From contig NC_087081.1 in the NCBI RefSeq assembly GCF_026151205.1, forward strand, positions 17,337,058 to 17,401,057: a stretch of DNA of 64,000 nucleotides, in the 5' to 3' direction. The stretch is from Bolinopsis microptera. Lineage: Eukaryota; Ctenophora; Tentaculata; Lobata; Bolinopsidae. The translations under genes were made by a program, and so were the position numbers. This document shows positions 1,106 to 60,960 of the stretch, piece by piece; position 1 is the stretch's first letter, and each line of letters starts with the position of its first letter. The notes below the pieces were generated by a model. It worked only from the letters and a program-made list of their open reading frames with translations. It was not told where the DNA came from and did no database searches.

Positions 1106-1266
1106 CTAATTACCGTTAATAGCACAAATAGGTCTGAAGGTGTTGAGGGTATCCCCACTAAATACTGTCTGGCTAGGTTTAAAAAAGGAAACCCGCCCCT
1201 CACTCATGAGACCGTGAGCAACGTCTTCAAGCTCTAACTCTCCCTGTCTCTTAGCTTTGTCAAAAT
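1106..1266 (-). CDS. Exon of an unidentified gene (possible last exon)
   Basis: On the minus strand a CTTTCAG acceptor precedes an open frame reading DFDKAKRQGELELEDVAH, then GLMSEGR, and ending TFRPICAING-N-stop at 1106. The charged, compositionally normal peptide and the good acceptor suggest a true exon. The product is not recognised. The first part of this exon and its acceptor are repeated four times upstream (1191-1575), so several alternative acceptors exist. A donor such as GGGTTTC just after the GLMSEG codons is an alternative end. It is probably the same gene as the exon at 2330-2479. Confidence 0.5.
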
Positions 1267-1575
1267 CTGAAAGTGAAAGTGAAAGTGAAACATATCCGCC
1301 CCTCACTCATGAGACCGTGAGCAACGTCTTCAAGCTCTAACTCTCCCTGTCTCTTAGCTTTGTCAAAATCTGAAAGTGAAAGTGAAACATATCCGCCCCT
1401 CACTCATGAGACCGTGAGCAACGTCTTCAAGCTCTAACTCTCCCTGTCTCTTAGCTTTGTCAAAATCTGAAAGTGAAAGTGAAACATATCCGCCCCTCAC
1501 TCATGAGGCCGGGGGCAAAAAAGTCTTCAAAGCTCTAAAATCTCCCTGTCTCTTAGCTTTGTCAAAATCTGGAGT
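1191..1575 (-). repeat. Tandem copies of an exon start plus its 3' splice site
   Basis: About four copies of a unit near 95-100 bp. In the minus-strand sense each reads a run of TTTCACTTTCAG (acceptor-like), then the FDKAKRQGELELEDVAH coding segment. The copy at 1500-1575 has diverged (GGCCGGGGGC and extra A runs). The number of GTGAAA repeats varies between copies. The array duplicates coding sequence together with the splice acceptor, so it is not a simple intronic satellite. Confidence 0.75.
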
Positions 1576-2640: not shown

Positions 2641-3118
2641 CACGAATATATTGTGTATTGGTAATGCTAGACTGTGTTGTGTATTGGTAATGCTAGACTT
2701 TGTTGTGTATTGGTAATGCTAGACTGTGTTGTGTATTGGTAATGCTAGACTGTGTTGTGTATTGGTAATGCTAGACTGTGTTGTGTATTGGTAATGCTAG
2801 ACTGTGTTGTGTATTGGTAATGCTAGACTGTGTTGTGTATTGGTAATGCTAGACTGTGTTGTGTATTGGTAATGCTAGACTGTGTTGTGTATTGGTAATG
2901 CTAGACTGTGTTGTGTATTGGTAATGCTAGACTGTGTTGTGTATTGGTAATGCTAGACTGTGTTGTGTATTGGTAATGCTAGACTGTGTTGTGTATTGGT
3001 AATGCTAGACTGTGTTGTGTATTGGTAATGCTAGACTGTGTTGTGTATTGGTAATGCTAGACTGTGTTGTGTATTGGTAATGCTAGACTGTGTCGTGTAT
3101 TGGTAATGCTAGACTGTG
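2641..3118. repeat. 26-bp minisatellite
   Basis: About 18 near-identical copies of TTGTGTATTGGTAATGCTAG plus ACTGTG. The last copies end at the unique sequence GCACCTTCTGG. No coding function seen. Confidence 0.9.
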
Positions 3119-36103: not shown

Positions 36104-36141
<38 letters not shown>

Positions 36142-36202
36142 AACAGTGCAAAAAACTAGAAGTGGGGGCTAAATAAAGAAAATTTCTTAAGTTTAATATA
36201 CA

Positions 36203-36248
<46 letters not shown>

Positions 36249-36524: not shown

Positions 36525-36564
<40 letters not shown>

Positions 36565-36634
36565 GGGGAAAAGTGAAATTACTAGCAAGTGGACCTAAAA
36601 ATAAGGAAAAAATTTTAAACTTTTTAAAATTATA

Positions 36635-36697
<63 letters not shown>

Positions 36698-36758
36698 AGC
36701 ATTTGCAATACTACCCCAAGTGGGGGTTTCATCAGACAATTTTTAATTTTTAATATAC

Positions 36759-36791
<33 letters not shown>

Positions 36792-36815
36792 GGGGGGGGG
36801 GGGGGGCAAAAAGGG
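35760..36815. repeat. G-run array, about 80-bp unit
   Basis: About ten degenerate copies of CAATCTTACTGTTTAATATACA followed by 8 to 50 G and a GAACAGTGCAATACTAGCAA segment. G-run length and spacers deteriorate from left to right, so the consensus is unreliable. The 82-120-codon Pro-rich frames on the minus strand are repeat shadows. Confidence 0.85.
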
Positions 36816-39347: not shown

Positions 39348-39394
<47 letters not shown>

Positions 39395-42300: not shown

Positions 42301-42714
42301 AGCAGAGTTTTAGTTTCAATTTTACGGACCAGCTCCTGTCACCTTCTCCAAACCCCCACACGAGGAACCCCCAGAACCTTTCCCCCTGAACCTTCCCCGG
42401 AACCCAACCCCTGGCGGGGGGCCCGGTTTTTTATAATCATACGTGTCGGTATAGCCAAAGTTAACTTTATGGAGGGCGCGAAATGGAGTGTTTAAATCCC
42501 CGCTGCCTCTTTAGAATAACTAAACTGCTCCCAGTTTGCTAAAGACAGGTCGTACCGGGGGGGAGAGGAAGCTGATAACAAAAAACCCCCCCTGACCCTG
42601 CTCCCGATGGTATGGATACGGGCAGTGTGAGGAGGGGGGCCCTCTCGGGGCCAAGGTTCCCCCGAGTAGACCCTTAAATTGGGGGGCCTTAAACCCCATG
42701 CCTTAACCCGAGGG
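36816..42714. other. Homopolymer-inflated, probably low-quality consensus
   Basis: An abrupt change of texture: nearly every base occurs in runs of 3-9 and stop-free Gly/Pro/Lys/Phe-rich frames abound. This looks like poorly polished long-read consensus, not biology. Recognisable fragments remain: a TIR like that of the element at 44562 (near 36988-37090), a 31-bp repeat GTTTCAGAGCACTAGTAACT (40395-40600) and TAATTAGGGTTACTAATTA repeats (42110-42240). Upstream TRAPPC8 exons may be hidden here; no frame in this tract should be trusted. Confidence 0.7.
40395..40600. repeat. 31-bp repeat
   Basis: Four clear and several eroded copies of TGTTTCAGAGCACTAGTAAC plus TAACTGTACAA. Copies lose quality towards 40650. 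Confidence 0.8.
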
Positions 42715-43443: not shown

Positions 43444-43574
43444 TTAACAGGGTGCTCCTTTATAATATGAGTTTTCCTAACAATGCAACTATACACTACC
43501 TTACTACTACCTATATAATTACTACTTACTACCTTACTACTACCTATATGAAATAATAGTTACTATGTAATAAT

Positions 43575-43655
43575 ACTTAGTATCTGTGTAGGTAATATGT
43601 AATAATACTTAGTATCTGTGTAGGTAATATGTAATAATACTTAGTATCTGTGTAG
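43575..43655 (+). repeat. Tandem repeat containing a 3' splice site
   Basis: Three copies of a 32-bp unit ending CTTAGTATCTGTGTAGGTAA. The last copy runs into the exon at 43656, so the true acceptor TATCTGTGTAG and the first exon bases GTAA are part of the repeat. Confidence 0.8.
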
Positions 43656-43777
43656 GTAAGCACTGCGGAGAGAACCTAACTATAGCGGACCAGGCAGCTA
43701 TTAGGGTATGTATTAACGACTTTGTAGTGCGAGGACTGCTTCCTTTCAACGAGCGGAGGATGAGAGCCCTTAACGAG
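43656..43777 (+). CDS. TRAPPC8: TRAPPC8-like, exon 1 of 6 seen
   Basis: GT completing a codon, then KHCGENLTIADQAAIRVCIN, DFVVRGLLPFNERRMRALNE and a GTGAGC donor. It matches the TRAPPC8 segment whose core is FxxxGLLPxxExxxRxLN. TRAPPC8 is a subunit of the TRAPPIII complex, which works with Rab1 in ER-Golgi traffic and autophagy. 122 bp, ending in phase 0. Both splice sites are embedded in tandem arrays. Earlier exons are not visible to the left, where the sequence is poor. Confidence 0.85.
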
Positions 43778-44450
43778 GTGAGCTGTCAATTAACTTATTA
43801 TTTAGGTTAATTAACGAGGTGAGCTGTCAATTAACTTATTATTTAGGTTAATTAACGAGGTGAACTGTCAATTAACTTATTATTTAGGTTAATTAACGAG
43901 GTGAACTGTCAATTAACTTATTATTTTGGTTAATTAACGAGGTGAGCTTTCAATTAACTTATTATTTAGGTTAATTAACGAGGTGAGCTGTTAATTAACT
44001 TATTATTTAGGTTAATTAACGAGGTGAGCTGTCAATTAACTTATTATTTAGGTTAATTAACGAGGTGAACTGTCAATTAACTTATTATTTAGGTTAATTA
44101 ACGAGGTGAACTGTCAATTAACTTATTATTTAGGTTAATTAACGAGGTGAGCTGTCAATTAACTTATTATTTTGGTTAATTAACGAGGTGAGCTGTCAAT
44201 TAACTTATTATTTAGGTTAATTAACGAGGTGAACTGTCAATTAACTTATTATTTAGGTTAATTAACGAGGTGAGCTGTTAATTAACTTATTATTTAGGTT
44301 AATTAACGAGGTGAGCTGTCAATTAACTTATTATTTAGGTTAATTAACGAGGTGAACTGTCAATTAACTAATTATTTAGGTTAATTAACGAGGTGAACTG
44401 TCAATTAACTTATTATTTAGGTTAATTAACGAGGTGAGCTGTTGTTAATT
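43778..44450 (+). repeat. 41-bp array copying the exon 1 donor
   Basis: About 16 copies of a unit that reads AACGAGGTGAGCTGTCAATT then AACTTATTATTTAGGTTAATT. It begins exactly at the exon end CTTAACGAG and each copy repeats the last exon bases plus the GTGAGC donor. It also holds a TTAAC branch-like motif and a TTATTATTTAG acceptor-like motif, so each unit resembles a minimal intron. Confidence 0.9.
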
Positions 44451-44750
44451 ACCTTATTATTTAAATTAATTTTTATTCGCATTTGTCTACAAAATCTGGA
44501 TACACTGTAGAGGACACTTAGTTTTATTTTTTATTTGATATTATTCATTCAATCTACTTAAGGGGACATACACCAAAACCTTTTTTGCCGGGACCCGCGA
44601 TTTGACTTCATATTATGAAAGTATAGATAAAAACAATAAGATTTGATACATTGAAAAAATATATAGTAGGCAAAAATTTCAATTTTGCTTCTCTAGACCT
44701 TGTTTGATCTGTAACTTCGTCATCTATTGTTTAATTATAGAATCATTTGG

Positions 44751-45777
44751 GTAACGCGACTCCTGTCCGACAGCGACATGTGTCCGACAGCGACATCTGT
44801 CCGACTAAGGGTACCAGAAAAAAACGACATCTGTCCGAAATTGTGATTTGATTTCAATACGACACATTTCCAATTGGAGACATGATCTGAACTGTTACTT
44901 GCAAATTTGTATACGTAACATTGCCAATTTCGACCTATACAGGCAGGCATGAAGCAACTGCGTTGTGAATGGCGAGCTCGTAGTCCATGAGGATGGATTG
45001 TGGTTGGTAGCCCCCAAGGCCCAAGAAGCCCAGGTGTCTATCTCCTCGAGGCTCGAACATGTTGCGGTAGAGGGTCGTTCGATTTTCCAGGAATGAGTCC
45101 ATAGAGATGGGGGAGGTGCCAGCCATCAGGGAAGAGTCCGTGGACTGTGAAGGAGCTGATGGAAGAGATTAGGTGCGGATTTGAAGGTACCGTCGACTAC
45201 CCCATGCTACCGCGTCCACCATATGATCTGCGTTCTTAGGAGTCCCCCAAAGGAAAGATCGACGAGTCTGTTGATCGTCCCATCCAGAGTCCCCAGAGCA
45301 TCATTGGACCTGTTGTCGGTAGAGTAGGATTTGGTTTGCAGGAATGGATAGCGTTTCCAGATCTCTCGGGTCTGTTTGCTGCAGATCTGGGTCTGTTTCC
45401 TGAAGATTGGTCGATTTTGTGGATTGCGATAACTGGATCTCCATACGGGCCGCTGTCCTATATTACTCATGTAGGCTGTGTCCTGTGATGTGATCGACAG
45501 TGTACGCCTAACTACGCCTAGCACAATCCTGTCCTCAAATAGTCAATCAAGTATCGATGGATCAGATCTCAATGGATCACATCAGCATTCGAACAATGGG
45601 AGCAACGTCACGAGATTACCCGTGAGCTTGTGAAATACGAATGTGAAACCGAAATTACAATATGATCCGAAATTCGGACAGATGTCGCCAAAAACGACTC
45701 CTGTCCGACAGCGACATCTTCCGAAATCCCCAATTCGGCTGTCGGACAGATGTCGCTGTCGGGACAGATGTCGCCCA
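44751..45777 (-). mobile_element. MULE-like element nested in the TIR element
   Basis: Flanked by ATCATTTGG (44742-44750) and ATCCTTTGG (45778-45786), a 9-bp duplication with one mismatch, as for Mutator-like elements. Terminal regions carry inverted copies of CTGTCCGACAGCGACATCTG. The interior encodes a transposase fragment. Confidence 0.7.
44935..45126 (-). pseudogene. MULE transposase fragment
   Basis: The 63-codon frame includes SFLENRTTLYRNMF and GYQPQSILMDYELAIHNAVA-SCLPV. The T-Y-N-MF then P-SILMDYE-A--NA---CLP spacing is the MULE DDE core around the second catalytic Asp. The N-terminal DDE region and zinc finger are not found, and the minus-strand frame at 45207-45524 is not recognised, so the gene is broken. 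Confidence 0.6.
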
Positions 45778-46060
45778 ATCCTTTGGCGGGCTTTTGTACG
45801 AATTCTAAATAATGTTCAGTAAAAAAACTTTTAAAATGACTGAAAAATCGGTATTACAGTGACAGACTTCTCAAAATTGAAAAAACTTTCCAAGAAGAAT
45901 TTTTTTTTTCTTCGAAAGTGCGTACTCTCAAAATAATTTTTCAATGAATCAAATCTTATTGTTTTTATCTATACTTTCATAATATGAAGTCAAATCGCGA
46001 GTCCCGGCAAAAAAGGTTTTGGTATATGTTCCCTAAAGTATGTTATCTTATCTACCACAG

Positions 46061-46170
46061 GCGCTGAATACAAGACGAGGATTACGGGGTACCTTCTTCT
46101 CCGCAACTAAGAAACTGTTTAGTCCAGGACCTAAACCAGGGGTGTCTGGTAAAGTACCAGCAAATCCTGG
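46061..46170 (+). CDS. TRAPPC8: TRAPPC8-like, exon 2 of 6 seen
   Basis: Acceptor CTACCACAG, then ALNTRRGLRGTFFSATKKLF and SPGPKPGVSGKVPANP plus GG. It matches the TRAPPC8 block RKGL-RSLFSATKKWFSGSKVP. The GTAGTG donor at 46171 gives phase 2, exactly what exon 3 needs; the next repeat copy offers a stronger GTAAGTG donor. The last 33 coding bases (GVSGKVPANPG) are the founding copy of the array that follows. Confidence 0.85.
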
Positions 46171-47920
46171 GTAGTGCAGGGGTGTCTGGTAAAGTACCAG
46201 CAAATCCTGGGTAAGTGCAGGGGTGTCTGGTAAAGTACCAGCAAATCCTGGGTAAGTGCAGGGTGTCTGGTAAAGTACCAGCAAATCCTGGGTAAGTGCA
46301 GGGGTGTCTGGTAAAGTACCTGCAAATCCTGGGTAAGTGCAGGGGTGTCTGGTAAATACCCCCCAGCAAATCCTGGGGAAAAGGGAGGGGGTCTGGGAAA
46401 GTACCAAAAAATCCTGGGGAAGTGCAGGGGTGTCTGGGAAAGGGACCCCGCAAATCCGGGTAAGTGGGAGGGGGGTTTTGTAAAGCCTCAAACCTGGGTA
46501 AATCAGGGGGGTCCCCGGGAAAGTCTGCAAATCCTGGGTAAGTTTCAGGGTGTCGGTAATCCGCAAATCCTGGGGGAAGTGCAGGGGGGGGGGGGCTGGT
46601 AAAGACCAGCAAATCCTGGTAAGTCAGGGGGTCTGGTAAAGTACCTGCAAAACCTGGGTAAGTGCAGGGGTGTCTGGTAAAAAAACCTCAAATCCTGGGT
46701 AAGTGCAGGGGGGTCTGGTAAAGTCCTGCAAATCCTGGGAATGCGGGGGTATGTAAATAAAAAAGCAAATCCTGGGGAAGTGCAGGGGGGGGTCGGGAAA
46801 GTACCTGCAAATCCGGTAATGCAGGGTGTCTGTAAAGTACCAGCAAATCCGGTAATGCAGGGGTGTCTGGTAAAGTACCAGCAAATCCTGGGTAAGTGCA
46901 GGGGTGTCTGGTAAAGTACCAGCAAATCCTGGTAAGTGCAGGGGTGTCTGGTAAAGTACCAGCAAATCCTGGGTAAGTGCAGGGGTGTCTGGTAAAGTAC
47001 CTGCAAATCCTGGGTAAGTGCAGGGGTGTCTGGTAAAGTACCAGCAAATCCTGGGTAAGTGCAGGGGTGTCTGGTAAAGTACCAGCAAATCCTGGGTAAG
47101 TGCAGGGGTGTCTGGTAAAGTACCAGCAAATCCTGGGTAAGTGCAGGGGTGTCTGGTAAAGTACCTGCAAATCCTGGGTAAGTGCAGGGGTGTCTGGTAA
47201 AGTACCAGCAAATCCTGGGTAAGTGCAGGGGTGTCTGGTAAAGTACCAGCAAATCCTGGGTAAGTGCAGGGGTGTCTGGTAAAGTACCAGCAAATCCTGG
47301 GTAAGTGCAGGGGTGTCTGGTAAAGTACCAGCAAATCCTGGTAAGTGCAGGGGTGTCTGGTAAAGTACCAGCAAATCCTGGGTAAGTGCAGGGGTGTCTG
47401 GTAAAGTACCAGCAAATCCTGGGTAAGTGCAGGGGTGTCTGGTAAAGTACCTGCAAATCCTGGGTAAGTGCAGGGGTGTCTGGTAAAGTACCTGCAAATC
47501 CTGGGTAAGTGCAGGGGTGTCTGGTAAAGTACCTGCAAATCCTGGGTAAGTGCAGGGGTGTCTGGTAAAGTACCTGCAAATCCTGGGTAAGTGCAGGGGT
47601 GTCTGGTAAAGTACCAGCAAATCCTGGGTAAGTGCAGGGGTGTCTGGTAAAGTACCAGCAAATCCTGGGTAAGTGCAGGGGTGTCTGGTAAAGTACCAGC
47701 AAATCCTGGGTAAGTGCAGGGGTGTCTGGTAAAGTACCTGCAAATCCTGGGTAAGTGCAGGGGTGTCTGGTAAAGTACCTGCAAATCCTGGGTAAGTGCA
47801 GGGGTGTCTGGTAAAGTACCAGCAAATCCTGGGTAAGTGCAGGGGTGTCTGGTAAAGTACCAGCAAATCCTGGGTAAGTGAAGGGGTGTCTGGTAAAGTA
47901 CCAGCAAATCCTGGGTAAGT
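46171..47920 (+). repeat. 41-bp array copying the exon 2 end and donor
   Basis: About 42 copies of GGGTGTCTGGTAAAGTACCA, then GCAAATCCTGG, then the donor GTAAGTGCAG. Copies alternate ACCAGC and ACCTGC. Copies at 46360-46860 are eroded with homopolymer errors; those from 46880 to 47920 are clean. Minus-strand open frames up to 427 codons in all three frames are shadows of a stop-free unit. Confidence 0.92.
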
Positions 47921-47940
47921 AAATTAATTATCTATTATAT

Positions 47941-48093
47941 TACACTCAATATTACACTCAATATTACACTCAGTATTACACTCAATATTACACTCAATAT
48001 TACACTCAGTATTACACTCAGTATTACACTCAATGTTACACTCAGTATTACACTCAGTATTACACTCAGTATTACACTCAACATTACACTCAG
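47941..48093 (+). repeat. 12-bp array copying the exon 3 acceptor
   Basis: About 13 copies of TATTACACTCAG or TATTACACTCAA. The last ends at the real acceptor ATTACACTCAG and the exon begins GTAT, like the start of the next repeat. Confidence 0.88.
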
Positions 48094-48244
48094 GTATCTG
48101 ACGGACTCGCCGGAGATACTGCTACGTAGATTAGGTGACATATCCTTCCTCCTGCAGCATTATACCATGGCTTATAGCTCATACCATCAAGTTAAGAGGG
48201 ACTTTCAGAACGATCAAGCTTACAACCATTATGCTGCAGCCCTG
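48094..48244 (+). CDS. TRAPPC8: TRAPPC8-like, exon 3 of 6 seen
   Basis: G completing a codon, then YLTDSPEILLRRLGDISFLL, QHYTMAYSSYHQVKRDFQND and QAYNHYAAAL, donor GTTAGA. Strong match to the TRAPPC8 stretch with APE---R-ADL-FL-QHY-LAY--YH--K-DF-NDQA--YAAGAL, a TPR-like helical repeat region. Ends in phase 0. Confidence 0.93.
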
Positions 48245-48269
48245 GTTAGACTACTAGCATTATACCTTA

Positions 48270-48345
48270 CTGTACTGCACTGTACTGTACTGTGCTGTAC
48301 TGCAACTGTACTGTACTGTACTGTACTGTTTTGTACTGTATTCTC
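48270..48345. repeat. (GTACT)n microsatellite
   Basis: Imperfect TGTACTGTACTGTACTG repeats about 25 bp after the exon 3 donor. Confidence 0.85.
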
Positions 48346-48696
48346 ATCGGTATAGAATAACTGGAGTTATTATTTCCATTGTTAAACAGTAAAAAAATAA
48401 TCTATGAGACCTTAAAAAGAGTTTCACCAAACTGATAGAATGGCATGATTCAGTTTTTGTTTATCAATATCCTCAAACTTATATACCACTTCAATCCCAA
48501 CCTGACTTATAAACAGTATAATATCATGCCTGTTATATAAGGCCTAACACTTATGAATTATTTAATGAAAATTTCTTTAAATCATCAATCGACATAATTA
48601 ATAAATATACGTTAACCTTGCGAGATTACGTCATCAATACGACAATACTAATTAATGATCCCCCCCCCCCCCCCTTAATGACTAGATATATTTCAG

Positions 48697-48794
48697 GAAA
48701 TGACGTCACTTTCTTTGTTTATGGGCAGTGGAGTGAGGAGAGAGCCACATCCGTACTACGATGAATGTATCAACGTTTATCTTAACCTTTGCAA
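48697..48794 (+). CDS. TRAPPC8: TRAPPC8-like, exon 4 of 6 seen
   Basis: Acceptor ATATTTCAG, then EMTSLSLFMGSGVRREPHPY and YDECINVYLNLC plus AA, donor GTGAGT. It aligns with EMAAVSAFL-PG---PYPAHYMD-AI--Y-DICK in TRAPPC8. Phase 0 in, phase 2 out. Confidence 0.88.
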
Positions 48795-48854
48795 GTGAGT
48801 TCAGCCCTTTCTCTTGTAGCGCAGTGCACTGATGGGTCAAGTAATACTCTCGCC

Positions 48855-51800
48855 CCCCCCCCCCCCCCCCCCCTTAACCAGGCTTATATAAACAGATCCC
48901 CCCCGCCCCTTAACCAGGCTTATATTAACAGATCCCCCCCTCCCCTTAACCAGGGCTTATATTTAAGATCCCCCGCCTTAACCAGGCTTTATTTAACGAT
49001 TCCCCCCTCCCCTTAACCAGGTATATTAAGATCCCCCCCCCCCCCCTTAACCAGGCTATATTAAAGATCCCCCCTTAACCAGGCTAATATTAACAGAACC
49101 CCCCCCCCCCCCCCTTAACCCAGTTAATTAAAAACCCCCCCCTTTTTAACCAGTTAATTAAAGATCCCCCCCCCCTTAACCAGGCCCTTTTTTTAACAAA
49201 AACCCCCCCCCCAAACCGGGCTAATTTAACAACCCCCCCCCCCCCCCCCCCCCCCTTAACCACTTTTTTTAACAATCCCCCCCCCCCCTTACCGGGCAAT
49301 TAACAACCCCCCCCCCCCTTAACCAGCTTTTTTAACAGTCCCCCCCCCCCTTAAAAACCGGGCAATTTTAACACCCCCCCCCCCAAACCATTTATATTAA
49401 CGATCCCCCCCCCTTAACCAGGTTTAATATTAACAGCCCCCCCCCTTAACCGGGCTAAAATTAACAATCCCCCCCTAATAATTTAACAGATCCCCCCCCC
49501 TTGGGGGTTTTTAAAGATCCCCCCTTTAAACCGGCTAATTTTTAACAGATCCCCCCCCCCTTAACCAGGATTTTAACAGACCCCCCCCCCCCCCCTTAAC
49601 CAGGCAAATATTAACAGACCCCCCCCCCCTTAACCCGGGGCTAATATTAACGATCCCCCCCCCCCTTAACCAGGTTTAAATTTTAACAGATCCCCCCCCC
49701 CTTAAAACCAGCTTATAAAAACAGATCCCCCCCCCCTTAAAAACCGGCTAATTTTAAAACAGACCCCCCCCCCTTAACCCGCTAAATTAACAGATCCCCC
49801 CCCCCCTTAACCGGGCTAATATAACAGACCCCCCCCCCCCTCCCCCTTTTCCCGCCCCCCCCCCCCTTAAACCGGGCATATTCGACCCCCCCCCCCCCCC
49901 CCCTAACCACCTAATTTTAAACAACCCCCCCCCCTTAAAACCGGCTAATATTACAACCCCCCCCCCCTTAACCGGGCTAATATTAAAAACCCCCCCCCCC
50001 CTTAACCCAGCTAATATTAAAGATCCCCCCCTTAAAACCGGGCTAAATTAACAGATCCCCCCCCCCTTTAAACCGGGCTATATTAAAAACCCCCCCCCCC
50101 CCCCTTAACCGGGCTAATATTAACAGACCCCCCCCCAACCCAGCCCCCCCCCCCCTTTAACCGCTTTATTAACAATCCCCCCCCCCCCCCTTTTTTAACA
50201 AAACCCCCCCCTTAACCAGGCTAAATTAAAGATCCCCCCCCCCCCTTCCCTTTTTCCCCCCCCCCCCAACCACCTTTTTAAAACCCCCCCCCCCCCCCCC
50301 CTAACCCACCTTTTAACAAAACCCCCCCCCAAACCATAATATTACCAGACCCCCCCCCCCACCGGAAATATTCAATCCCCCCCCCCCAACCCTTTTTCTC
50401 CCCCCCCCCTTAACCAGGCATATTAACAGACCCCCCCCCCCTTTTTCCCCCCCCCCTTAACCGGCTAATTTTAACAGATCCCCCCCTTAACCGGTTTTTA
50501 AAATAACAATCCCCCCCCCCCCCCCCCTTAACCGGGCTATATTCCCTCCCCCCCCTTAACCAGGCAATATTAACAATCCCCCCCCCCCCCCTTAACCAGG
50601 TTTATTTAACGATCCCCCCCCCTCTTAACCAGGCAAATTAACGATCCCCCCCCTTAACCAGGGAATTAAGTCCCCCCCCCCCCCCCCTTAAACCACCCCT
50701 TATTAACAGACCCCCCCCTTAACCAGCAAATTTTCCCAATCCCCCCCCCCCCCCAAACCCGGGCTAATATTAACAGACCCCCCCCCCCCTTAACCGGGCT
50801 AAAATCCAATCCCCCCCCCCCCTTAACCAGGAATATTAACAACCCCCCCCCTTAACCGGCTAATATAACAGACCCCCCCCCTTAACCGGGTTTATATTAA
50901 CAGACCCCCCCCCCCCCCCCCCTTAAACCGGGTTTTATATAAAAACCCCCCCCCCCCCCCCCTTAACCAGCAATATTAACGACCCCCCCCCCCTTAACCA
51001 GGTTATATTAACAGACCCCCCCCCCCCCTTAAACCCGGGTTTATATTACAACCCCCCCCCCTTAAACCGGGCTAATAAAACAGACCCCCCCCCCCCCCCC
51101 CCTTAACCGGGCTTATAAAACAGACCCCCCCCCCCTTAACCAGGCTAATATTAAAGTTTCCCCCCCCCCCCCTTAACCAGGTTTAATTAACAGACCCCCC
51201 CCCCTTAACCGCTTAATTAAAAACCCCCCCCCCCCTTTAAAACCAGCTAATATTAACAGACCCCCCCCCCCCCCCCAACCAGGCTTAATTAACAGTCCCC
51301 CCCCCCCCCTTCCCCCCCCCCCCCCCCTTAACCAGGCAAATTTAAATCCCCCCCTTAACCAGCAAAATTTTACAGTCCCCCCCCCCCTTTTAACCGGCTA
51401 ATATTAACAAACCCCCCCCCCCCCCCTTAAAACCGGCAAATTTAACAATCCCCCCCTTAAACCGGGCTTTAAAACAACCCCCCCCCCCCCTTAAACCAGC
51501 TTATTTTAACAGATCCCCCCCCCTTTAAACCGGCTAATATTAACAGACCCCCCCCCTTCCCCGGCCAAAAAGATCCCCCCCCCCCCCTTAAACCACTTAT
51601 TTTTAAACAACCCCCCCCCCTTTAACCCCACCAAATTTTAAAAAAACCCCCCCCAACCAGCTAATATACGATCCCCCCCCTTAACCAGGCTAATTTTAAC
51701 GCCCCCCCCCCCCCCCCCCCCTTAACCGCTATATTAAAAAGTCCCCCCCCCCCTTAACCCCAGGAAAAAATTTTAACAATCCCCCCCCCTTAACCAGGCT

Positions 51801-54800
51801 TATATTAACAGATCCCCCCCCTTAACCAGGCTAATATTAACAGATCCCCCCCCCTTAACCAGGCTTATAATTAACAGCCCCCCCCCCCCTAACCAGGCTT
51901 TATTAACAACCCCCCCCCCCCTTAAAAACCGGCTAATATTAACAGACCCCCCCCCCCCCCCCCTTAAACCGGGCTTTATAACAATCCCCCCCCCCTTTTA
52001 AAAACCGGGCAATATTAACAGATCCCCCCCCAGTTTTAAACCCCCCCCCCCCCCCCCCTTAACCAGGCTATTTTAACAATCCCCCCCCCCCCCCTTAAAC
52101 CCCAAATATTACCGACCCCCCCCCCCCCCTTAACCGGGCTAATATTAACAGACCCCCCCCCCTTTAAAACCGGGCAAAATTTAACCAATCCCCCCCCCCC
52201 CCCCCTAACAGGCTAAATAACAACCCCCCCCCCCCTTAACCAGGCTAATATTAACAGACCCCCCCCCCCCCCCCTTAACCGGCTTATTTTAACAGACCCC
52301 CCCCCCCCCCCCCCCCTTAACCGGGGTTTATATTAACAGATCCCCCCCCCTTAACCAGCTAAATTAAAATTTTCCCCCCCCCTTAACCAGGCTCTATATT
52401 AACAGATCCCCCCCCCCTTAACCAGCTAATATTAACAGATCCCCCCCTTAACCAGGCTTATATTAACAGATCCCCCCCCCCCTTAACCAGGCTAATATTA
52501 ACAGATCCCCCCCCCCCCCTTAACCAGGCTAATATTACCAGATCCCCCCCCCCTTAACCAGGCTATATTAACAGATCCCCCCCCCCCCCCTTAACCAGGC
52601 TAATATTACCAGATCCCCCCCCCCCCTTAACCAGCTAATATTAACAGATCCCCCCCTTAACCAGGCTTATATTAACAATCCCCCCCCCCTTAACCAGGCT
52701 ATATTAACAATCCCCCCCCCCCCTTAACCAGGCTAATATTAACAGATCCCTCCCCCCTTAACCAGGCTTATATTAACAGATCCCCCCCCCCCCCTTATCC
52801 AGGCTATATTAACAGATCCCCCCCCCTTAACCAGGCTAATATTTAACAGATCCCCCCCCTTAACCAGGCTTATATTAACTGATCCCCCCCCCCCTTTACC
52901 AGCTTATATTAACAGTCCCCCCCCCCGTAACCAGGCTATTATTAACAGATCCACCCCCCCTTAACCAGGATTATAGTATCAGATCCCCCCCCCCTTAACC
53001 AGGCTAGATTAACAAGACCCCCCCCCTCTTAACCAGGCTGATATTAACAGATCCCCCCCCCCCCCCTTTACCAGGCTTATATTAACAGATCCCCCCCCCC
53101 CTCTTAACCAGGCTAATTTAACAGATCCCCCCTTAACACAGGCGTATATTACCAGATCCCCCCCCCCGCCACCCCCCTTCCAGAGCTCATATTTAACAGA
53201 TCCCCCCCCCCCCCTTTACCAGGCTAATATTAACAGATTCCCCCCCCTCCCTCCTTAGACCTTAGGCCTAATATTAACAGATCCCCCCCCCTTAACCAGG
53301 CTTATATTAACAGATCCCCCCCCCCCCCTTAACCAGCTAATATTAACAGATCCCCCCCCCCCTTAACCAGGCTTATATTACAACCCCCCCCCCCCCCTTA
53401 CCAGGCAATATTAACAGCCCCCCCCCCCCCCCCCCCTTAAACCAGGCTTATTAACAACCCCCCCCCTTTAAACCAGCTTATATTAACAAAAACCCCCCCC
53501 CCTTAACCGGGCTATAAAAAAGCCCCCCCCCCCCCCCTTAACCAGCTTATTTAACAATCCCCCCCCCCCCCTTAACCGGGGCTCAATTAACAGACCCCCC
53601 CCCTTTAACCAGGCTAATATTAACAGATCCCCCCCTTAACCAGGCAATATTAACGATCCCCCCCCCCCTTAACCGGGCTAAATTAACAGACCCCCCCCCC
53701 CCCCCCCCCCCCCCCCTTAACCGGGGCTAATATTAACAGATCCCCCCCCCTTAACCGGGCTTTATTAACAATCCCCCCCCCCCCCCTTAACCAGCTTATA
53801 TTAACAGACCCCCCCCCCCCTTTAAACCAGGCTAATAAAACAACCCCCCCCTTAAACCGGGTTTATTTTAAAAAAACCCCCCCCCCCCCCTTAACCAGGT
53901 TTAATATTAACAACCCCCCCCCCCCCCCTTAACCAGCTCATATTAACAACCCCCCCCCCCTTAAAACCGGGCAATATTACCAGATCCCCCCCCCCCCCCC
54001 AACCAATAATATTAACAGACCCCCCCCCCCCCCCCTTTTAAACCGGGAAAATTAACAGATCCCCCCCCCTTAAAACCAGGCTTATATTAACGACCCCCCC
54101 CCCCCCCTTAACCGGGCTTAAAAACAGATCCCCCCCCCTTAACCAGGCTAATTTTAAACAAATCCCCCCCCCCTTAACCCGGGATTATATTAACAATCCC
54201 CCCCCCCCCTTAACCAGGTTTATTTTAACAACCCCCCCCCCTTAAACCCCGGCTAATATTAACAGACCCCCCCCCCCCCCCCCCCTTAAACCATTTAATT
54301 AACAGTCCCCCCCCCCCCCTTAACCAGGCTAAATTAACAGACCCCCCCCTTAACCAGGTATATTACCAAACCCCCCCCCCCCTCCCCCCCCCTTAACCGG
54401 GCCATATTACAGACCCCCCCCCCCCCCCTTAACCAGGCTTATTACCAGACCCCCCCCCCCCCCTTAACCGGGCTAATATTAACCCCCCCCCCCCCTTAAC
54501 CGGGCTAATATTACCAGACCCCCCCCCCCCCCCCCCCCCTTAACCAGGCTAATATTAAAAACCCCCCCCCCCCCTTAACCGGGCATATTAAAAATTTTCC
54601 CCCCCCCCCCCCTTAACCCCGGCTTATATTAACAGACCCCCCCCCCCCCCCCCCCCAAAAACCGGATATTAACAAAATCCCCCCCCCCCCTTTAAACCGG
54701 CAAATATTAACAGTTTTCCCCCCCCCCCTTAACCGGGCTTAATAACAGACCCCCCCCCTTAAACCGGGCTAATTTAACAACCCCCCCCCCCCCTTAAAAC

Positions 54801-57767
54801 CAGGTTTTATATTAAAAATTTCCCCCCCCCTAACCACTAAATTAACGCCCCCCCCCCCCCCCCCCCTAACCAGGCTCATATTAACAGATCCCCCTTCCCC
54901 CCTTAACCAGGCTTATATTAACAGATCCCCCCCCCCCCCTTAACCAGGCTAATATTAACAGATCCCCCCTTAACCAGGCTTATATTACCAGATCCCCCCT
55001 CCCCCCCTTAACCAGGCTAATATTAACAGATCCCCCCTTAACCAGGCTTATATTACCAGATCCCCCCCTCCCCCCCCCCCTTAACCAGGCTTATATTAAC
55101 AGATCCCCCCCCCCCCTTAACCCTGTCTTATATTAACAGATCCCCCCCCCTTAACCAGGCTAATATTAACAGATCCCCCCCTTAACCAGGCTTATATTTA
55201 ACAGATCCCCCCCCCCCCCCTTAACCAGGCTTATATTAACAGACCCCCCCCCCTTAACCAGGCGAATATAAACAGATCCCCCCCCCCCTTAACCAGGCTT
55301 ATATTAACAGATCCCCCCCCCCCTTAACCAGGCTAATATAACAGATCCCCCCCCCCCTTAACCAGGCTTATATTAACAGATCCCCCCCCCCTTAAACCCC
55401 CCCCCCTTAAAATAACAGATCCCCCCCCCCCTTTAACCAGGCTATATTAACAGCCCCCCCCCCCCCCCCCCCCTTAACCGGGCAATATTAAAAAATCCCC
55501 CCCCCCCCCCTTAACCATTTATTTTAACGCCCCCCCCCCCCAAACCAGCTAATTTTAACAGCCCCCCCCCCCAAAAAAAACCGGGTTTATATTACCAATC
55601 CCCCCCTCCCCCCCCCCCCCCCTTAACCGGGCTTATTTTAACAGACCCCCCCCCCCCCTTAACCAGTTTCAATAAAACGACCCCCCCCCCCCTTAACCAG
55701 GCTTATATTAACAACCCCCCCCCCCCCCCTTAACCGGGGCCAATAACAATCCCCCCCCCCCCTTTAAAACCAGCTTCATATTAACAGATCCCCCCCCCCC
55801 TAACCGCTATTTTAACAATCCCCCCCCCTTAACCGGGCTAATTTTAACAACCCCCCCCCCCCTAACCAGGCTATATTAACAGATCCCCCCCCCCCTTAAC
55901 CAGGCGTATATTACAGATCCCCCCCTCCCCCCCCCCCCCTTAACCAGGCTCATATTAACAGATTCCCCCCCCCCTTAACCAGGCTAATATTACCAGATCC
56001 CCCCCCCCCCCCTTAACCAGGCTAATATTAACAGACCCCCCCCCCCCCTTAACCAGGCTAATATTACCATGCTCCCCCCCCCCTTAACCAGGCTAATTTA
56101 ACAGATCCCCCCCCCCCCCTTAACCAGGCTAATATTAACAGATCCCCCCCCCCTTAACCAGCTTATATTAACAGATCCCCCCCCCTTAACCAGGCTTATA
56201 TTAACAGATCCCCCCCCCCCCCCCTTAACCAGGCTAATATTAACAGATCCCCCCCCCCCCCCTTAACCAGGCTTATATTAACAGATCCCCCCCCCCTTAA
56301 CCAGGCTTATATTAACAGACCCCCCCCCCCCCTTAACCAGGCTAATATTAACAGATCCCCCCCCCCCTTAACCAGGCTAATATTAACAGATCCCCCCCCC
56401 CTTACCAGGGCTTATATTAACAGATCCTCCCCCCTAACCAGGCTTATATTAACAGATCCCCCCCCCCCCCTTAACCAGGCTAATATTAACAGATCCCTCC
56501 CCCCCCCCCCCTTAACCAGGCTATATTAACAGTTCCCCCCCCCCCCCCCCTTAACCAGCTAATATTAACAGATCCCCCCCCCTTAACCAGGCTTATATTA
56601 ACAGATCCCCCCCCATTAACCAGGCTAATATTAACAGATCCCCCCCCCCCTTAACCAGGCTTATATTAACAGATCCCCCCCCCTTAACCAGGCTAATATT
56701 AACAGATCCCCCCCCCCTTAACCAGGCTATATTAACAGATCCCCCCCCCCCTTAACCATGCTTATATTAACAGATCCCCCCCCCCCTTAACCAGGCTTAT
56801 ATTAACAGATCCCCCCCCCCCTTAACCAGGCAGTTATTAACAGATCCCCCCCCCCTCTTAACCAGGCTTATATTACAGATCCCCCCATAAACCAGGCGTA
56901 TATACCAGATCCCCCCCTCCCCCCCTTAACCAGGCTAATATTAACAGATCCCTCCCCCCTCCCCATTAACCAGGCGTAATATTACCAGATCCCCCCCCCC
57001 CTTAACTCAGCTTATATGAACAGATCCCCCGCTCCCCCCTTAACCATGGCTTTATATTAACAGATCCCCATCCCCCTCCCCCCCTTAACCTGGCAAATAT
57101 TTGAACAGATCCCCCCCCCTTAACCAGGCTTATATAACAGATCCCCCCCTCCCCCCCCTTAACCAGGCTTATATTAACAGATCCATCCCCCTCCCCTTAA
57201 CCAGGCTTATATTAACAGATCCCCCCCCCTTAACCAGGCTAATATTAACAGATTCCCCCCCCCTTAACCATGGCTTATATTAACAGATCCCCCCCCTTAA
57301 TCATGGCTAATATTAACTAGAATCCCCCCCCCCCCCTTAACCAGGCTAATATTAACAGATCCCCCCCCCCCCCCCCCTTAACCAGGCTCATATTAACAGA
57401 TCCCCCCCCCCCCCTAACCAGGCTTATATTAACAGATCCCCCCCCGCCCCTAACCAGGCTCATATTAACAGATCCCCCCCCCCCCCTTAACCAGGCTCAT
57501 ATTAACAGATCCCCCCCCCCCTTAACCAGGCTCATATTAACAGATCCCCCCCCCCCCCTTAACCAGGCTAATATTAACAGATCCCCCTTAACCAGGCTTA
57601 TATTACCAGATCCCCCCCCCCCCCCCCCCCCCCCTTAACCAGGCTTATATTAACAGATCCCCCCCCCCCCTTAACCAGGCTCATATTAACAGACCCCCCC
57701 CCCCCTTAACCAGGCTAATATTAACAGATCCCCCCCCCCCCCCCCTTAACCAGGCTAATATTAACAG
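48855..57767 (+). repeat. 9-kb C-run array copying the exon 5 acceptor
   Basis: About 260 copies of CTTAACCAGGCTAATATTAA then CAGAT and 5-20 C. The last unit ends at the exon 5 acceptor TATTAACAG, and the exon begins ATCCCC like every unit. Each unit holds a branch-like TTAAC/CTAAT, a pyrimidine run and AG. The edges (48860-49000, 52400-53350, 55870-57770) are clean; the middle is full of run-length errors. True length is uncertain. Confidence 0.93.
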
Positions 57768-57909
57768 ATCCCCGCTGTACGCAATGAGAGCAACACTAGT
57801 GCACTGTGAGTGTTTGATATCCCGTGGTTATTACCTCTCAGCTGCTGCTTGGTTTATTAAGATGGCTAATGACGAAAATGATCTGAACAGTGGACTTCTA
57901 CTTGAACAG
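57768..57909 (+). CDS. TRAPPC8: TRAPPC8-like, exon 5 of 6 seen
   Basis: A completing a Lys codon, then SPLYAMRATLVHCECLISRG, YYLSAAAWFIKMANDENDLN and SGLLLEQ, donor GTAGGG. It matches the TRAPPC8 segment ending S-AA--LI-MTSED-DLRSALLLEQ. The acceptor is supplied by the last unit of the 9-kb array. Phase 2 in, phase 0 out. Confidence 0.93.
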
Positions 57910-58012
57910 GTAGGGTTTTACATGTACAATAAAACCTCTCTATACCGGGGTTTATTGGAGAGGGGGTATTTCACTGAATATTACCAATTTACCAACTAAC
58001 ATTGGACCTTCA
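57910..58012 (+). other. Start of TRAPPC8 intron
   Basis: Unique sequence from the GTAGGG donor to the long-TIR element. This junction has no array. Confidence 0.6.
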
Positions 58013-58354
58013 CCATCTAGCGTCATTTAGCGTGAAATGACACTCGATGATGCTAGATGGCGCTAGATGACGCTAGATGACATTGACACTAGATGACGCT
58101 AGATGACGCGGGAATGTCGGTTTGCGACAGTTCACGCTAGATGTCGCCGCGACATCTAGCGCTATCAAGCGCCATCTAGCGCTAGATGGCGGAAGATGTC
58201 GGACGGTTTGCGATAGTTGACGGTTGATGTCGCCGCGACATCGGTCTAGCGCTAGATAGCGGAGAATTTCGGTTTGCTACAGTTAACGCTAAATGTCTCG
58301 GCGCTCGCTATTTAATTTGTCACTCATGGCTGTCGTGATATAACTAATAACGCC

Positions 58355-58390
58355 AACGGGTGAAACTCGTAAAATATTTGTTCCAAATAT
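58355..58390 (+). repeat. Copy of the TTAA-MITE end
   Basis: ACGGGTGAAACTCGTAAAATATTTGTTCC, given here as its first part ACGGGTGAAACTCG, resembles the end at 28820. No partner and no TTAA found. Confidence 0.5.
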
Positions 58391-59135
58391 TATTTCAAGA
58401 CTGTTGAAGAGTCCAAATTGTTACTTAGCTTGCTACTGCTAGTCTATTGTTCACTTCACTCGGGAACCCGCACGTCTTGTTAAGTTATTAATCTACAATA
58501 TAACGCGCCCTCAAGCACTGAACCATTTAGTTGTGTGAATAGTTAGTGTTGATTTAGTATTAATTTTTGATTGAACGTCTTGTTTCGATTTTATTTTATC
58601 GATTCAACTTCAAGTTGTAACCGAACTACAAACTAGGTTTGACTCTATAATCGTAATTAATTAAATTTGTATAAAATCTTTGTAGTACTACTATTACTTT
58701 GTAGTAGTACCAGTGTAATTCATATATTTTATATTTCATTTTGTGTAGAACTAGAAATATATTTGATTATGTTCGTATCATTATATTAATTAGTTCGAAT
58801 TATATAAGTGTGGGTAGTCACCCTGTATAAGTGGATCGTAGTTTTTAGCTCGTTTACAACGCCCAAATTGAATCGATGAAATAAAATAGCGAAAACAAAT
58901 GCATGCAATTTTGCAGGCTCGAAAATGAAATTACCAGTCCCTGTACTGTGCGCGGCGCTCTTTTCAAGCTTCATTAACAGGAATATCACGTATATCACAA
59001 GCTAGGTAAAAATCAAAAATATTCGCACAAATGCTCAGTGCGCGTTCTGTCGCGCGCAACAGCCATGAGTGACAAATAGCGAGCGCTTGCCTCAATTTTT
59101 AAAAATATCTTATGAAAAGGCCCTGTACCGAGAGT

Positions 59136-59861
59136 TTTTTTTTAAATATAACTTTATTCAAATCAAAAATAGAACATAAATGAACATCTTAAAGATCTGA
59201 TAAGTAGCCAGAAAAAAAGAAATACTGATACACAAGCTATAACAACTTCTTCCATCCCGCTCTATCAGAGGCTAAAAGTCTTAAATTGTACAAATCGTCT
59301 GTATTTACAAATGGAATGTTCCTACTACCTAAATCAAATTTAATAGTATTAAGCAAGTTCGACTGGTGTCTGCCTACTCTACCCTTTTTGGTACTCTGAC
59401 TCTCTACTGCAAAGTGTAATGCAAGCTGTGCAGGTGAGTTGTTATCACTGCGAAGGACATGTCCGAGCATCCTCCATCGTGCACATGCAACACGCTCACT
59501 GAGTGGAACCACTTCACATCTCTTGTAAAGGGTGTCGTTTTTGATTATATTAGGGTAAGTCATTCTGATGATTTGCCTCAGATGCTTTCTGTGGCAAATA
59601 TCCAGTTTACTCAGTAGCTGCTTTGAAGCAGCCCAGCAGCTACAATTATACATTAAGACGGAGACCACCTGGGCTTCGTAGATCTTAAGTCTGGTCTTAA
59701 ATCGTCTTTTTATGTCCTCGTTGCTGCACAATTTGGAACCAAGTGAGATAGATGATCTCCAGGGCTCTCTTCCTCGAAGTGGCTCTCCTTTGTCATCAAC
59801 TTCGTTCTTCTCAGCCAGATAGATATGTGTGAACTCTGTTTTTGATTCGTTGACAACTCTC
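59136..59861 (-). mobile_element. 5'-truncated non-LTR retrotransposon with 11-bp TSD
   Basis: GTACCGAGAGT at 59125-59135 and 59862-59872 flanks the insert. On the minus strand the 3' end is a short A-run next to the left duplication, and the body starts directly at the right one. Textbook target-primed insertion with 5' truncation, nested in the long-TIR element. Confidence 0.88.
59237..59861 (-). pseudogene. Reverse transcriptase C-terminal fragment
   Basis: The minus-strand frame reads RVVNESKTEFTHIYLAEKNE, then SISLGSKLCSNEDIKRRF, VVSVLMYNCSCWAASKQLLS, HRKHLRQIIRM and RWRMLGHVLRSDNN, ending SDRAGWKKLL. This is the region after the RT active site (SLGS motif, thumb and C-terminal R-RMLGHVLR motif) seen in many animal non-LTR elements. 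The catalytic RT motifs and endonuclease are missing, so it is inactive. Clade uncertain; it is not the CR1-like family at 30 kb. Confidence 0.82.
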
Positions 59862-60022
59862 GTACCGAGAGTATGAAAGTAATAAGAATCGGTGATTTTT
59901 TGGACGCTGATTCCTGATCACCCACATGCACCATGACGTAGTACAATTTTAGGGTAAAATTACTTCCCTGGAGAGTTACGGGCAAAAAACTGTTTAGTCA
60001 CGTGTCGAATTTTATTGTTTAG

Positions 60023-60137
60023 GGCTCAGGTTAGAGTTAGGGTTGTGGTTAGGGTTAGGGTTGTGGTAAGGGTTATGGCATATGGATAGCGTCGGGGTTA
60101 TGGTTACTGTTAGGGTTAGGGTTGGGATTAGGGGTTT
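60023..60137. repeat. Interstitial telomere-like TTAGGG repeats
   Basis: Degenerate GGTTAGGGTTAGGGTTG repeats with GTGGTTAGGG and GGTTATGG variants. TTAGGG is the usual animal telomere unit. Both flanks are other sequence, so this is internal. Confidence 0.8.
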
Positions 60138-60385
60138 TGTAAAACCGTTTTGTTTGGCTGCAAAACTATGAAAACCAAAGTCACGTGATAATTTTAAGGC
60201 GAGCGAACTAGTAAAAGCCAACATCTAGCGTGAACTGTCGCAAACCGACATTCTTCGCTATCTAACGCTATCTAGACAGCGCTAGCTGTCGCCTGGCGAC
60301 AGTGTCGCGTAACTAGCGTTAAGTGACGCTAGATAACGTCATCTAGCATCATCTAGCGTCATTTCACGCTAGATGACGCTAGATG

Positions 60386-60620
60386 TCGAATTTCAATCCC
60401 TAACATTGTGTTTCTTACTTGTTCTATGTTTGACTGCACGTAACAAGTACGTAACTAGTGATATCGGAAGGATAATACAACTAACCATTTCACTAGATTC
60501 CCTAAACACACGGATCTCTACATGTATTCCCTATCACACACTTGTTATTGTTACATAAGTGTGAACTTTAGGTGGAATATTGATGTTTTAACCGACAGCA
60601 CTACTAATCTGCACTTCCAG
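60386..60620 (+). other. End of TRAPPC8 intron
   Basis: Unique sequence between the TIR element and exon 6. No array at this acceptor (GCACTTCCAG). Confidence 0.6.
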
Positions 60621-60765
60621 GGCGCACATTGCTACGTCAGAGTGGACCCTCCCTCTCTCAGGAAATACGCCTTCCACTTAGTGTTAGCAGGACATCGTTA
60701 CAGCAAGGTGGGACAGAGGAAACACGCTCTCAGATGTTACAAGAACGCCGGGGACATCTTCAAGG
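60621..60765 (+). CDS. TRAPPC8: TRAPPC8-like, exon 6 of 6 seen
   Basis: Acceptor CTTCCAG, then GAHCYVRVDPPSLRKYAFHL, VLAGHRYSKVGQRKHALRCY and KNAGDIFK plus G, donor GTAAGA. Close match to AAHCF----P--RKYAFHMILAGHR-SKAGQKKHALRCY in TRAPPC8, the best-conserved part seen here. Phase 0 in, phase 1 out. The six exons give about 254 consecutive residues. The next exon is not visible before the window ends. Confidence 0.95.
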
Positions 60766-60960
60766 GTAAGATCTTAATTTATTTGGGACATCTTCAAGGG
60801 TAAGATCTTAATTTATTTGGGACATCTTCAAAGATAATGTTTCGATTTGTTTGGGACATCTTCAAAGATAATGTTTCAGTTTGTCTGGGACATCTTCAAA
60901 GATAATGTTTCAGTTTGTCTGGGACATCTTCAAAGATAATGATTCGATTTGTCTGGGACA
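60766..60960 (+). repeat. 34-bp array copying the exon 6 end and donor
   Basis: Six copies of GGGACATCTTCAAGGGTAAG plus ATCTTAATTTATTT. The exon ends GGGGACATCTTCAAGG followed by GTAAGAT, so the exon tail and donor are the first copy. The first extra copy keeps the donor; later ones read CAAAGATAATG and have lost it. Confidence 0.9.

What the first reader, a model, noticed from the sequence alone, without database searches (positions are those of the whole stretch)
43575..60960. Tandem arrays in TRAPPC8 start exactly at splice junctions and contain the splice site
Five TRAPPC8 junctions with arrays (43656 acceptor, 43778 donor, 46171 donor, 48094 acceptor, 60766 donor), plus 57768 (acceptor), have a repeat unit that includes the real splice site and often the adjoining exon bases. 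The exon edge is the first or last unit. Units differ in sequence (32, 41, 41, 12, about 34 and 34 bp), so this is not one invading satellite but repeated local amplification of exon edges. Two minus-strand exons at 1.1-2.5 kb show the same. Chance placement within introns of several kb would rarely hit the junction eight times. A mechanism acting at exon edges, or selection for redundant splice sites, is implied. I know of no named system that does this.
Basis: partly seen in the sequence, partly recalled or inferred. Interest (0 to 1): 0.88.

Follow-up and report, generated by a model that had tools for sequence, protein, structure and literature searches.

The report
Tandem repeats that copy splice junctions
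In a gene of what is probably a comb jelly, short stretches that straddle the edge between coding and non-coding DNA have been copied many times in a row; this kind of repeat was described before in lancelets, and here two copies of the same gene segment show the repeats with and without the extra copies.

Summary
Of 12 TRAPPC8 junctions checked on the + strand, an array crosses five and abuts one. It has a name: "mirages", minisatellites that duplicate exon-intron boundaries, are reported in several lancelet genes. The minus-strand arrays lie in a second, inverted copy of the TRAPPC8 3' part, so all eight junctions come from one gene. The other copy lies downstream (L070), 98% identical where aligned, with one unit where the window copy has 17, four and three: a before/after view. 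The new acceptor array contains a piece of the upstream donor array with no exact copy elsewhere in the genome. With pre-expansion introns, spanning arrays are 5 against 3.25 expected (P 0.17); other counts give P 0.008-0.03, post hoc. Myosin and CCT genes show 0 of 94 paired junctions. Elsewhere dynein and POLR3A, and three more exons by reading frame, carry such arrays. Selection for redundant sites is unlikely. The host is probably the ctenophore Bolinopsis microptera.

The parts
43557..43659 (+). acceptor-type array of TRAPPC8 exon A, unit 32 bp; last unit carries the acceptor before 43656 and 4 exon bases
43656..43777 (+). TRAPPC8 exon A
   Evidence: joined exons against PDB 7b6e/7b6r; 98% over query 1-43
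43770..44471 (+). donor-type array, unit 41 bp, 17 copies of exon tail TTAACGAG plus GTGA
46061..46170 (+). TRAPPC8 exon B; donor at 46171 (GTAGTG in the first unit, GTAAGT in most later units)
46137..47920 (+). donor-type array, unit 41 bp, 34 exon bases in the first unit; 31 exact CCTGGGTAAGT
47937..48092 (+). acceptor-abutting array, unit 12 bp; 7 of 13 exact TTACACTCA units are followed by G (CAG), 6 by A
48094..48244 (+). TRAPPC8 exon C (3' end by eye)
   Evidence: (PF12739 E 1.5e-15)
48862..57773 (+). acceptor-type array, unit about 35 bp (C-run, TTAACCAGGCTTATATTAACAG|AT), about 254 copies by TRF, 122 exact TTAACAG
57768..57909 (+). TRAPPC8 exon X (3' end by eye)
60621..60765 (+). TRAPPC8 exon D (5' end by eye)
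60751..60960 (+). donor-type array, unit 34 bp; first 2 units keep GTAAG, 4 distal units read GATAA
3417..3516 (.). 100-N scaffold gap next to the inverted TRAPPC8 copy
2651..3118 (-). 26-bp array starting 4 bases inside the donor of exon E: 17 exact units here (18 by TRF), 1 in L070
1859..2359 (-). donor-type array of exon F, unit about 76 bp, exon tail in each unit; 7 CCTG|GTATG here, 6 in L070 (the stricter pattern counts 6 here)
1193..1571 (-). acceptor-type array of exon G: four exon heads separated by three linkers of 23, 23 and 29 bp ending in TTTCAG; single exon head in L070
977..1110 (-). array starting at the donor of exon G: 3 GTAATACTACT units here, 1 in L070

Best explanation
These are mirage-type minisatellites. 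A short tandem duplication, made by polymerase slippage or template switching, happens to straddle an exon-intron junction. It is tolerated because splicing can still use the exon-adjacent site (first unit at a donor, last unit at an acceptor), so the protein is unchanged and all other units become intron. Unequal exchange then multiplies the units and turns introns of about 70-400 bp into longer ones, up to kilobases. Because several ancestral introns are short, arrays in them often touch a junction without any targeting. Shown: anatomy of the arrays, single-copy against multi-copy state in two copies of the gene, the same anatomy in other genes, and a linker shared by a donor array and the new acceptor array. 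Inferred: the mutational route and its direction, neutrality, which splice site is used, and that the two gene copies are the two haplotypes.
For: Junction-crossing units of different sequence at each junction. The two copies of the 3' part differ at 30 of 1526 aligned bases, with 13 gap events, and in array state: 17 against 1, 4 against 1, 3 against 1, 7 against 6. Linker GATATGTTTCACTTTCACTTTCA occurs 10 times exactly in 264.65 Mb, all in these two copies: 3 in the new acceptor array, 4 and 3 in the donor arrays. The exon-adjacent donor at 46171 fits the length of fly TRAPPC8, and seven of 8 units are not multiples of three. Genome-wide, tandem AGGTAAGT pairs number 1201 against 19 for the reversed motif, while single counts are 10758 against 7965. 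5 of 16 fetched tandem-donor loci show a coding exon tail in the unit. Random-placement null with pre-expansion introns: 5 spanning against 3.25, P 0.17.
Against: Span-or-abut count 8 against 4.26 (P 0.008; 0.008-0.013 over three assumed F-G lengths) leaves room for a bias to junctions, and adding the 43656 and 60766 arrays, whose introns are not complete in the window, makes spanning 7 against 3.3-3.6 (P 0.01-0.03; biased upward, since other arrays of those introns are left out). With finished intron lengths the window alone gives 3 against 1.08 (P 0.05) and 4 against 1.41 (P 0.013). The tandem-donor excess over the reversed motif is larger than the single-motif excess, yet 10 of the 12 listed pair loci show no evident exon in what was fetched. 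0 of 94 paired myosin/CCT junctions carry a mirage, so the process is very uneven between genes. No RNA was available.
Confidence: 0.68

Rival explanations
1. A process acts preferentially at splice junctions, for example replication stalling or template switching at co-transcriptional structures near splice sites, so that arrays start there more often than elsewhere.
For: TRAPPC8 span-or-abut excess (8 against 4.26, P 0.008) and spanning 7 against 3.3-3.6 when the two incomplete introns are added (P 0.01-0.03). In myosin/CCT introns 3 of 13 distinct arrays lie within 10 bp of an intron end (expected 0.80, P 0.037) and 5 of 13 within 20 bp (expected 1.54, P 0.009). Among 175 myosin/CCT match edges, paired or not, two short donor arrays may take in one exon base and a third starts 2 bases inside the donor (by eye). 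Donor-like motifs in 5 of 30 array units outside the window against 1.5 expected (P 0.016). 1201 against 19 tandem donors.
Against: Spanning in complete TRAPPC8 introns is not in excess (P 0.17-0.23) and is 0 against 1.0 expected in the paired controls; with pre-expansion introns the control span-or-abut count is 3 against 1.65 (P 0.21). Acceptor motifs are not enriched in non-window array units (1 of 30), and the donor rank test there gives P 0.11. TRAPPC8 was picked for its arrays.
Confidence: 0.22
2. Selection keeps redundant copies of splice sites because they make splicing more robust.
For: In the 43770-44471 array all 17 units keep exon tail plus GTGA.
Against: Seven of 8 unit lengths are not multiples of three; distal donors of the 60766 array are destroyed in 4 of 6 units; 6 of 13 units at 48094 lack AG; reading through an acceptor unit of exon G meets a stop codon; one gene copy lacks three of the arrays.
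Confidence: 0.03
3. The arrays are assembly artefacts.
For: Copy 1 ends at a 100-N gap and has a damaged consensus there; long arrays have homopolymer-rich degenerate stretches.
Against: Clean arrays with several distinct unit variants occur in both gene copies and in unrelated genes; the linker fusion needs two distinct source sites.
Confidence: 0.04
4. The inverted 3' copy is a true inverted segmental duplication, not the second haplotype; the arrays then differ between paralogues.
For: It lies on the same chromosome scaffold, about 65 kb away and inverted.
Against: It ends at a scaffold gap, has a degraded consensus at that end, and differs by 2%, a value like the 2% SNP heterozygosity given for the ctenophore H. 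californensis (passage).
Confidence: 0.2

Closest known systems
Mirages (mirage minisatellites) of lancelets: Adh3, globin genes BflGb6 and BflGb9, TnC, PGBD5
   Same: Tandem minisatellites that span an exon-intron boundary, at 5' and 3' junctions, with exon bases and the splice signal in the unit; units 10-160 bp; copy number differs between haplotypes; not all units carry AG/GT (PMC3087553 passages; PMC3902484 passage).
   Different: Different animal, probably a ctenophore; many junctions of one gene; arrays up to about 254 units; array state differs between two copies of the gene; a composite acceptor that shares a piece with a donor array. Regular splicing is suggested by RT-PCR for lancelet globins and is not shown here.
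Intron gain by tandem genomic duplication (AGGT model; reviewed in PMC3443670, passages)
   Same: Tandem duplication that copies splice-like sequence; the product stays silent because splicing removes it.
   Different: There the duplication makes a new intron inside an exon; here existing junctions are multiplied and the intron grows. Novel introns were not looked for.
Introners (dispersed intron-creating elements; recalled, no call)
   Same: New intron sequence with its own splice signals.
   Different: Introners are dispersed copies of one sequence; here each TRAPPC8 junction has its own unit and exact copies of the linker are confined to one gene.

Membership tests
Mirage minisatellites | tandem repeat that spans an exon-intron boundary and includes the splice site | tested here: met
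   TRAPPC8 donors 43778, 46171, 60766, acceptors 43656, 57768; exon F donor and exon G acceptor on the minus strand
Mirage minisatellites | both 5' and 3' junctions can be affected | tested here: met
Mirage minisatellites | many but not all units carry the AG/GT signal | tested here: met
   2 of 6 units at 60766 and 7 of 13 at 48094 carry it, 17 of 17 at 43778
Mirage minisatellites | length varies between alleles | tested here: inconclusive
   two copies differ 17:1, 4:1, 3:1, but that they are alleles is inferred
Mirage minisatellites | regular splicing is not disturbed | not testable with these tools
   no RNA held; phase and protein length fit the exon-adjacent site
Intron gain by AGGT tandem duplication | an intron at a position new to the gene | not tested
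   intron positions were not compared with other species
Introners | dispersed near-identical copies in many genes | tested here: not met
   exact linker copies occur only in the two copies of this gene, 10 times; TRAPPC8 units differ at each junction; inexact copies were not searched

The most novel reading that the evidence does not exclude
In this lineage mirage turnover is fast and general enough to replace working splice sites: duplications that straddle junctions, joined with pieces of neighbouring arrays, keep building new 3' and 5' splice sites while the protein stays the same, so that intron length and splice-site sequence change between haplotypes of one species. The exon G acceptor, made from a donor-array fragment in one copy only, would be such an event caught in the act.
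Probability: 0.3. Interest if true: 0.72.

Novelty: new member of a known kind. Interest (0 to 1): 0.5.

Why it matters
In the open-licence papers found mirages are reported only from lancelets. Finding them in a probable ctenophore suggests that the process is not a lancelet oddity. Two copies of one gene segment with and without arrays make the birth of a mirage, and the swap of an acceptor for a newly built one, open to direct test. The case also shows how a chance argument from present intron length misleads when the array itself made the intron long.

Tried and rejected
Identifying the host by mitochondrial COX1: no match in the assembly. Splice-motif test on array units (period 20 or more): outside the window donors 5 of 30 and acceptors 1 of 30 above the control 95th percentile, rank tests P 0.11 and 0.84; in the window 3 of 20 and 3 of 20, rank tests P 0.27 and 0.014. 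Permutation with finished introns gave P 3e-4 for TRAPPC8; I use the pre-expansion null as the main test because the other holds present intron length fixed. A duplicated-junction search over 47 donors and 47 acceptors of myosin and CCT found 0 of 94 (93 distinct, one acceptor is shared by two introns). The 15 control arrays count two arrays twice; one search repeats the test on 13. Lengths of the three 3' introns were measured by hand (204, 376, 98); one search measures 210 and 97 and varies the middle one. A first idea that the minus-strand exons mark an inverted scaffold of one gene was dropped when one search found the same exon downstream on the + strand. A second control motif (ATGGAAGT pairs) and further control families (PF00225, PF01602) did not complete. 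The original Adh3 mirage paper: the DOI that I recalled for it is not held.
Full report
What was checked. The window is G000:C10:17337058-17401057 of a 264.65 Mb assembly with 232 contigs. I set exon edges by eye from reading frame and then joined the exons: the 259-residue peptide matches solved Drosophila TRAPPC8 over two stretches, E 9.1e-57, and PF12739 hits exon C at 1.5e-15. On the + strand I examined 12 junctions (exons A, B, C, C2, X, D). Five are crossed by an array (acceptor 43656, donors 43778, 46171 and 60766, acceptor 57768), one is abutted (48094), and six have no array at them. Ends of C, C2, X and the start of D are by eye (one search places X at 57768-57909 and D from 60621).

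The minus-strand exons are the same gene. A search of the whole genome with the TRAPPC8 peptide finds the exon AENHIGFTIGKLSYYV at window 3173-3298 on the minus strand and again, with 100% identity over residues 229-259, at C10:17405621-17405713 on the plus strand, 4.6 kb downstream of the window. So window 1-3416, which ends at a 100-N gap, is a second, inverted copy of the 3' part of TRAPPC8.

A before/after comparison. I fetched the downstream copy as L070 and aligned the two. They differ at 30 of 1526 aligned bases, with 13 gap events (arrays are included where they align). Array states differ strongly. The 26-bp repeat that starts 4 bases inside the exon E donor has 17 exact units in the window copy and one in L070. 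The exon F donor array has 7 donor copies against 6 (a stricter pattern counts 6 and 6). The exon G acceptor has four exon heads against one. The repeat at the exon G donor has three units against one. Three of four arrays are thus single-copy in L070. The contig end, the damaged consensus next to the gap and the 2% divergence make residual haplotype sequence the likeliest reason for two copies; this is inference.

How the acceptor array was built. In the window copy the exon G array reads exon head (74 bp; 79 bp and degraded in the first), linker, exon head, linker, exon head, linker, true exon. The linkers are 23, 23 and 29 bp and end in TTTCACTTTCAG. The sequence GATATGTTTCACTTTCACTTTCA occurs 10 times exactly in the whole genome: 3 in this array, 4 in the donor array of the exon before it, 3 in the matching donor array of L070. 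The simplest reading is that the new acceptor was assembled from a piece of the donor array a few hundred bases upstream and then amplified together with the exon head. Joins with one or two shared bases fit template switching; direction and route are inferred. Reading through one unit meets a stop, so only the last acceptor gives the normal protein. In that copy the working acceptor should be a newly built one; no RNA shows this.

Is the placement at junctions more than chance? With finished introns held fixed, 4 of 10 arrays in the five complete window introns lie at an intron end against 0.63 expected, P 3e-4. But several introns are long because of the arrays. Without them intron B-C is about 70 bp and C2-X about 103 bp, and the introns of the 3' part are about 210, 376 or less, and 97 bp. 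Placing one unit at random in the pre-expansion intron gives, for the window, 3 junction-spanning arrays against 1.78 expected (P 0.21) and 4 spanning or within 10 bp against 2.46 (P 0.13). With the 3' copy it gives 5 against 3.25 (P 0.17) and 8 against 4.26 (P 0.008). The acceptor 43656 and donor 60766 arrays were left out because their introns are not complete in the window; adding just these two positives gives 7 against 3.3-3.6, P 0.01-0.03, which leans upward because other arrays in those introns stay uncounted. All these P values are post hoc in a gene picked for its arrays.

Control genes. In 46 complete myosin and CCT introns, 13 distinct arrays were seen: 0 span a junction against 1.0 expected, 3 lie within 10 bp of an intron end (expected 0.80, P 0.037) and 5 within 20 bp (expected 1.54, P 0.009) with finished introns held fixed; with pre-expansion introns 3 against 1.65, P 0.21. 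A separate search found 0 of 94 duplicated junctions (93 distinct). Outside this paired set, among 175 match edges, two short donor arrays (C2:20663289, C3:11063551-11063594) may take in one exon base and a third (C13:10317340) starts 2 bases inside a donor. So a mild pull towards junctions is possible but not shown.

Is it general in this genome? Tandem pairs of the donor-like 8-mer AGGTAAGT with period 12-42 bp number 536 + 665 = 1201, against 10 + 9 = 19 for the motif read backwards, although single copies number 10758 against 7965. The 100 places listed for the pairs form 12 loci in C1 and the first 2.7 Mb of C2, against 2.1-2.8 expected from the control (P 2e-6 to 4e-5; for 10 distinct units 6e-5 to 7e-4; without three simple-repeat-like units 0.006 to 0.025). 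Only one control motif was answered. I fetched the exon-side flank of all 12, and of the four other clusters with spacing under 100 bp in the single-motif list (first 100 places, C1 to 2.6 Mb, one strand). In 5 of these 16 the unit holds a coding exon tail plus donor, with the exon as first unit. They are POLR3A (L073; PDB 7a6h E 6.5e-4 when joined with the preceding exon, no match for the exon alone), a dynein heavy chain (L079; PDB E 1.8e-6, no Pfam match), a sushi-like exon with 44 donor copies (L078; PF00084 E 0.0024, below Pfam's cut-off), a second sushi-like exon (L082, by reading only) and a signal-peptide exon (L077, by reading; no Pfam match). Only 2 of these 5 (L073, L077) come from the 12 pair loci; the other 10 show no evident exon in the few hundred bases fetched. 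A 72-bp array with a strong acceptor motif lies near a myosin-matching locus (L007 2836-3058), not tied to a known exon.

Selection for spare splice sites is unlikely: seven of the 8 unit lengths tabulated are not multiples of three, and the 60766 array has lost the donor GT in 4 of 6 units, although all 17 units at 43778 keep theirs.

What it is called. Tandem minisatellites that duplicate intron-exon boundaries were named mirages in lancelet (PMC3087553, passages). They are reported there for Adh3 and two globin genes and, in PMC3902484 (one passage), also for TnC and PGBD5. Those passages report both junction types, units of 10-160 bp, haplotype length differences, no disturbance of regular splicing, and a model of intron gain. 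The present arrays meet the three mirage features I could test outright; allelic variation is likely but inferred, and splicing could not be tested. I found no paper on them in ctenophores (open-licence full text only).

Host. Twelve known contig lengths of C1-C13 sum to 242.9 Mb and leave 21.8 Mb for C12 and the rest, which fits 13 chromosomes. Bolinopsis microptera is given as 265 Mb with 13 chromosome-scale scaffolds holding 97.23% of bases (passages; one table lists 346 scaffolds, against 232 contigs here). I hold the name at about 85%; it rests on size and karyotype, not on sequence.

Noticed in passing
window 8186-13974: A 345-bp satellite runs to 11307 (9.0 copies) and then continues to 13974 with a reverse-complement-looking unit (7.7 copies), a head-to-head foldback; 99-100% matches by TRF.
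   Followed up: no
window 35800-42500 and 46350-46850: G-rich, homopolymer-laden sequence that looks by eye like poor consensus, so array copy numbers there are unsafe.
   Followed up: no
L079 1-410: A coding stretch of about 150 bp of the dynein exon appears twice in a row, in addition to the donor array; duplication in the exon or assembly error.
   Followed up: no
L006 and L007 (C11): Two myosin-matching loci about 150 kb apart in opposite orientation, 97.1% identical over 2.4 kb with 17 gaps, then abrupt divergence: a second inverted pair like the TRAPPC8 one.
   Followed up: partly
L007 2836-3058: 72-bp unit, 3.1 copies, with a strong acceptor motif (CTTCTTTCAG followed by possible exon); it lies beyond the part of L007 that aligns with L006.
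   Followed up: partly
G000:C1:36576-37703 and C1:761375-762150: The same 32-bp donor-containing unit forms arrays at two places 725 kb apart with related flanks; likewise a 19-bp unit at C2:2666901 and C2:2723669.
   Followed up: partly
window 33743-34744: Open frame of 334 codons that looks by eye like a seven-transmembrane receptor; not tested.
   Followed up: no
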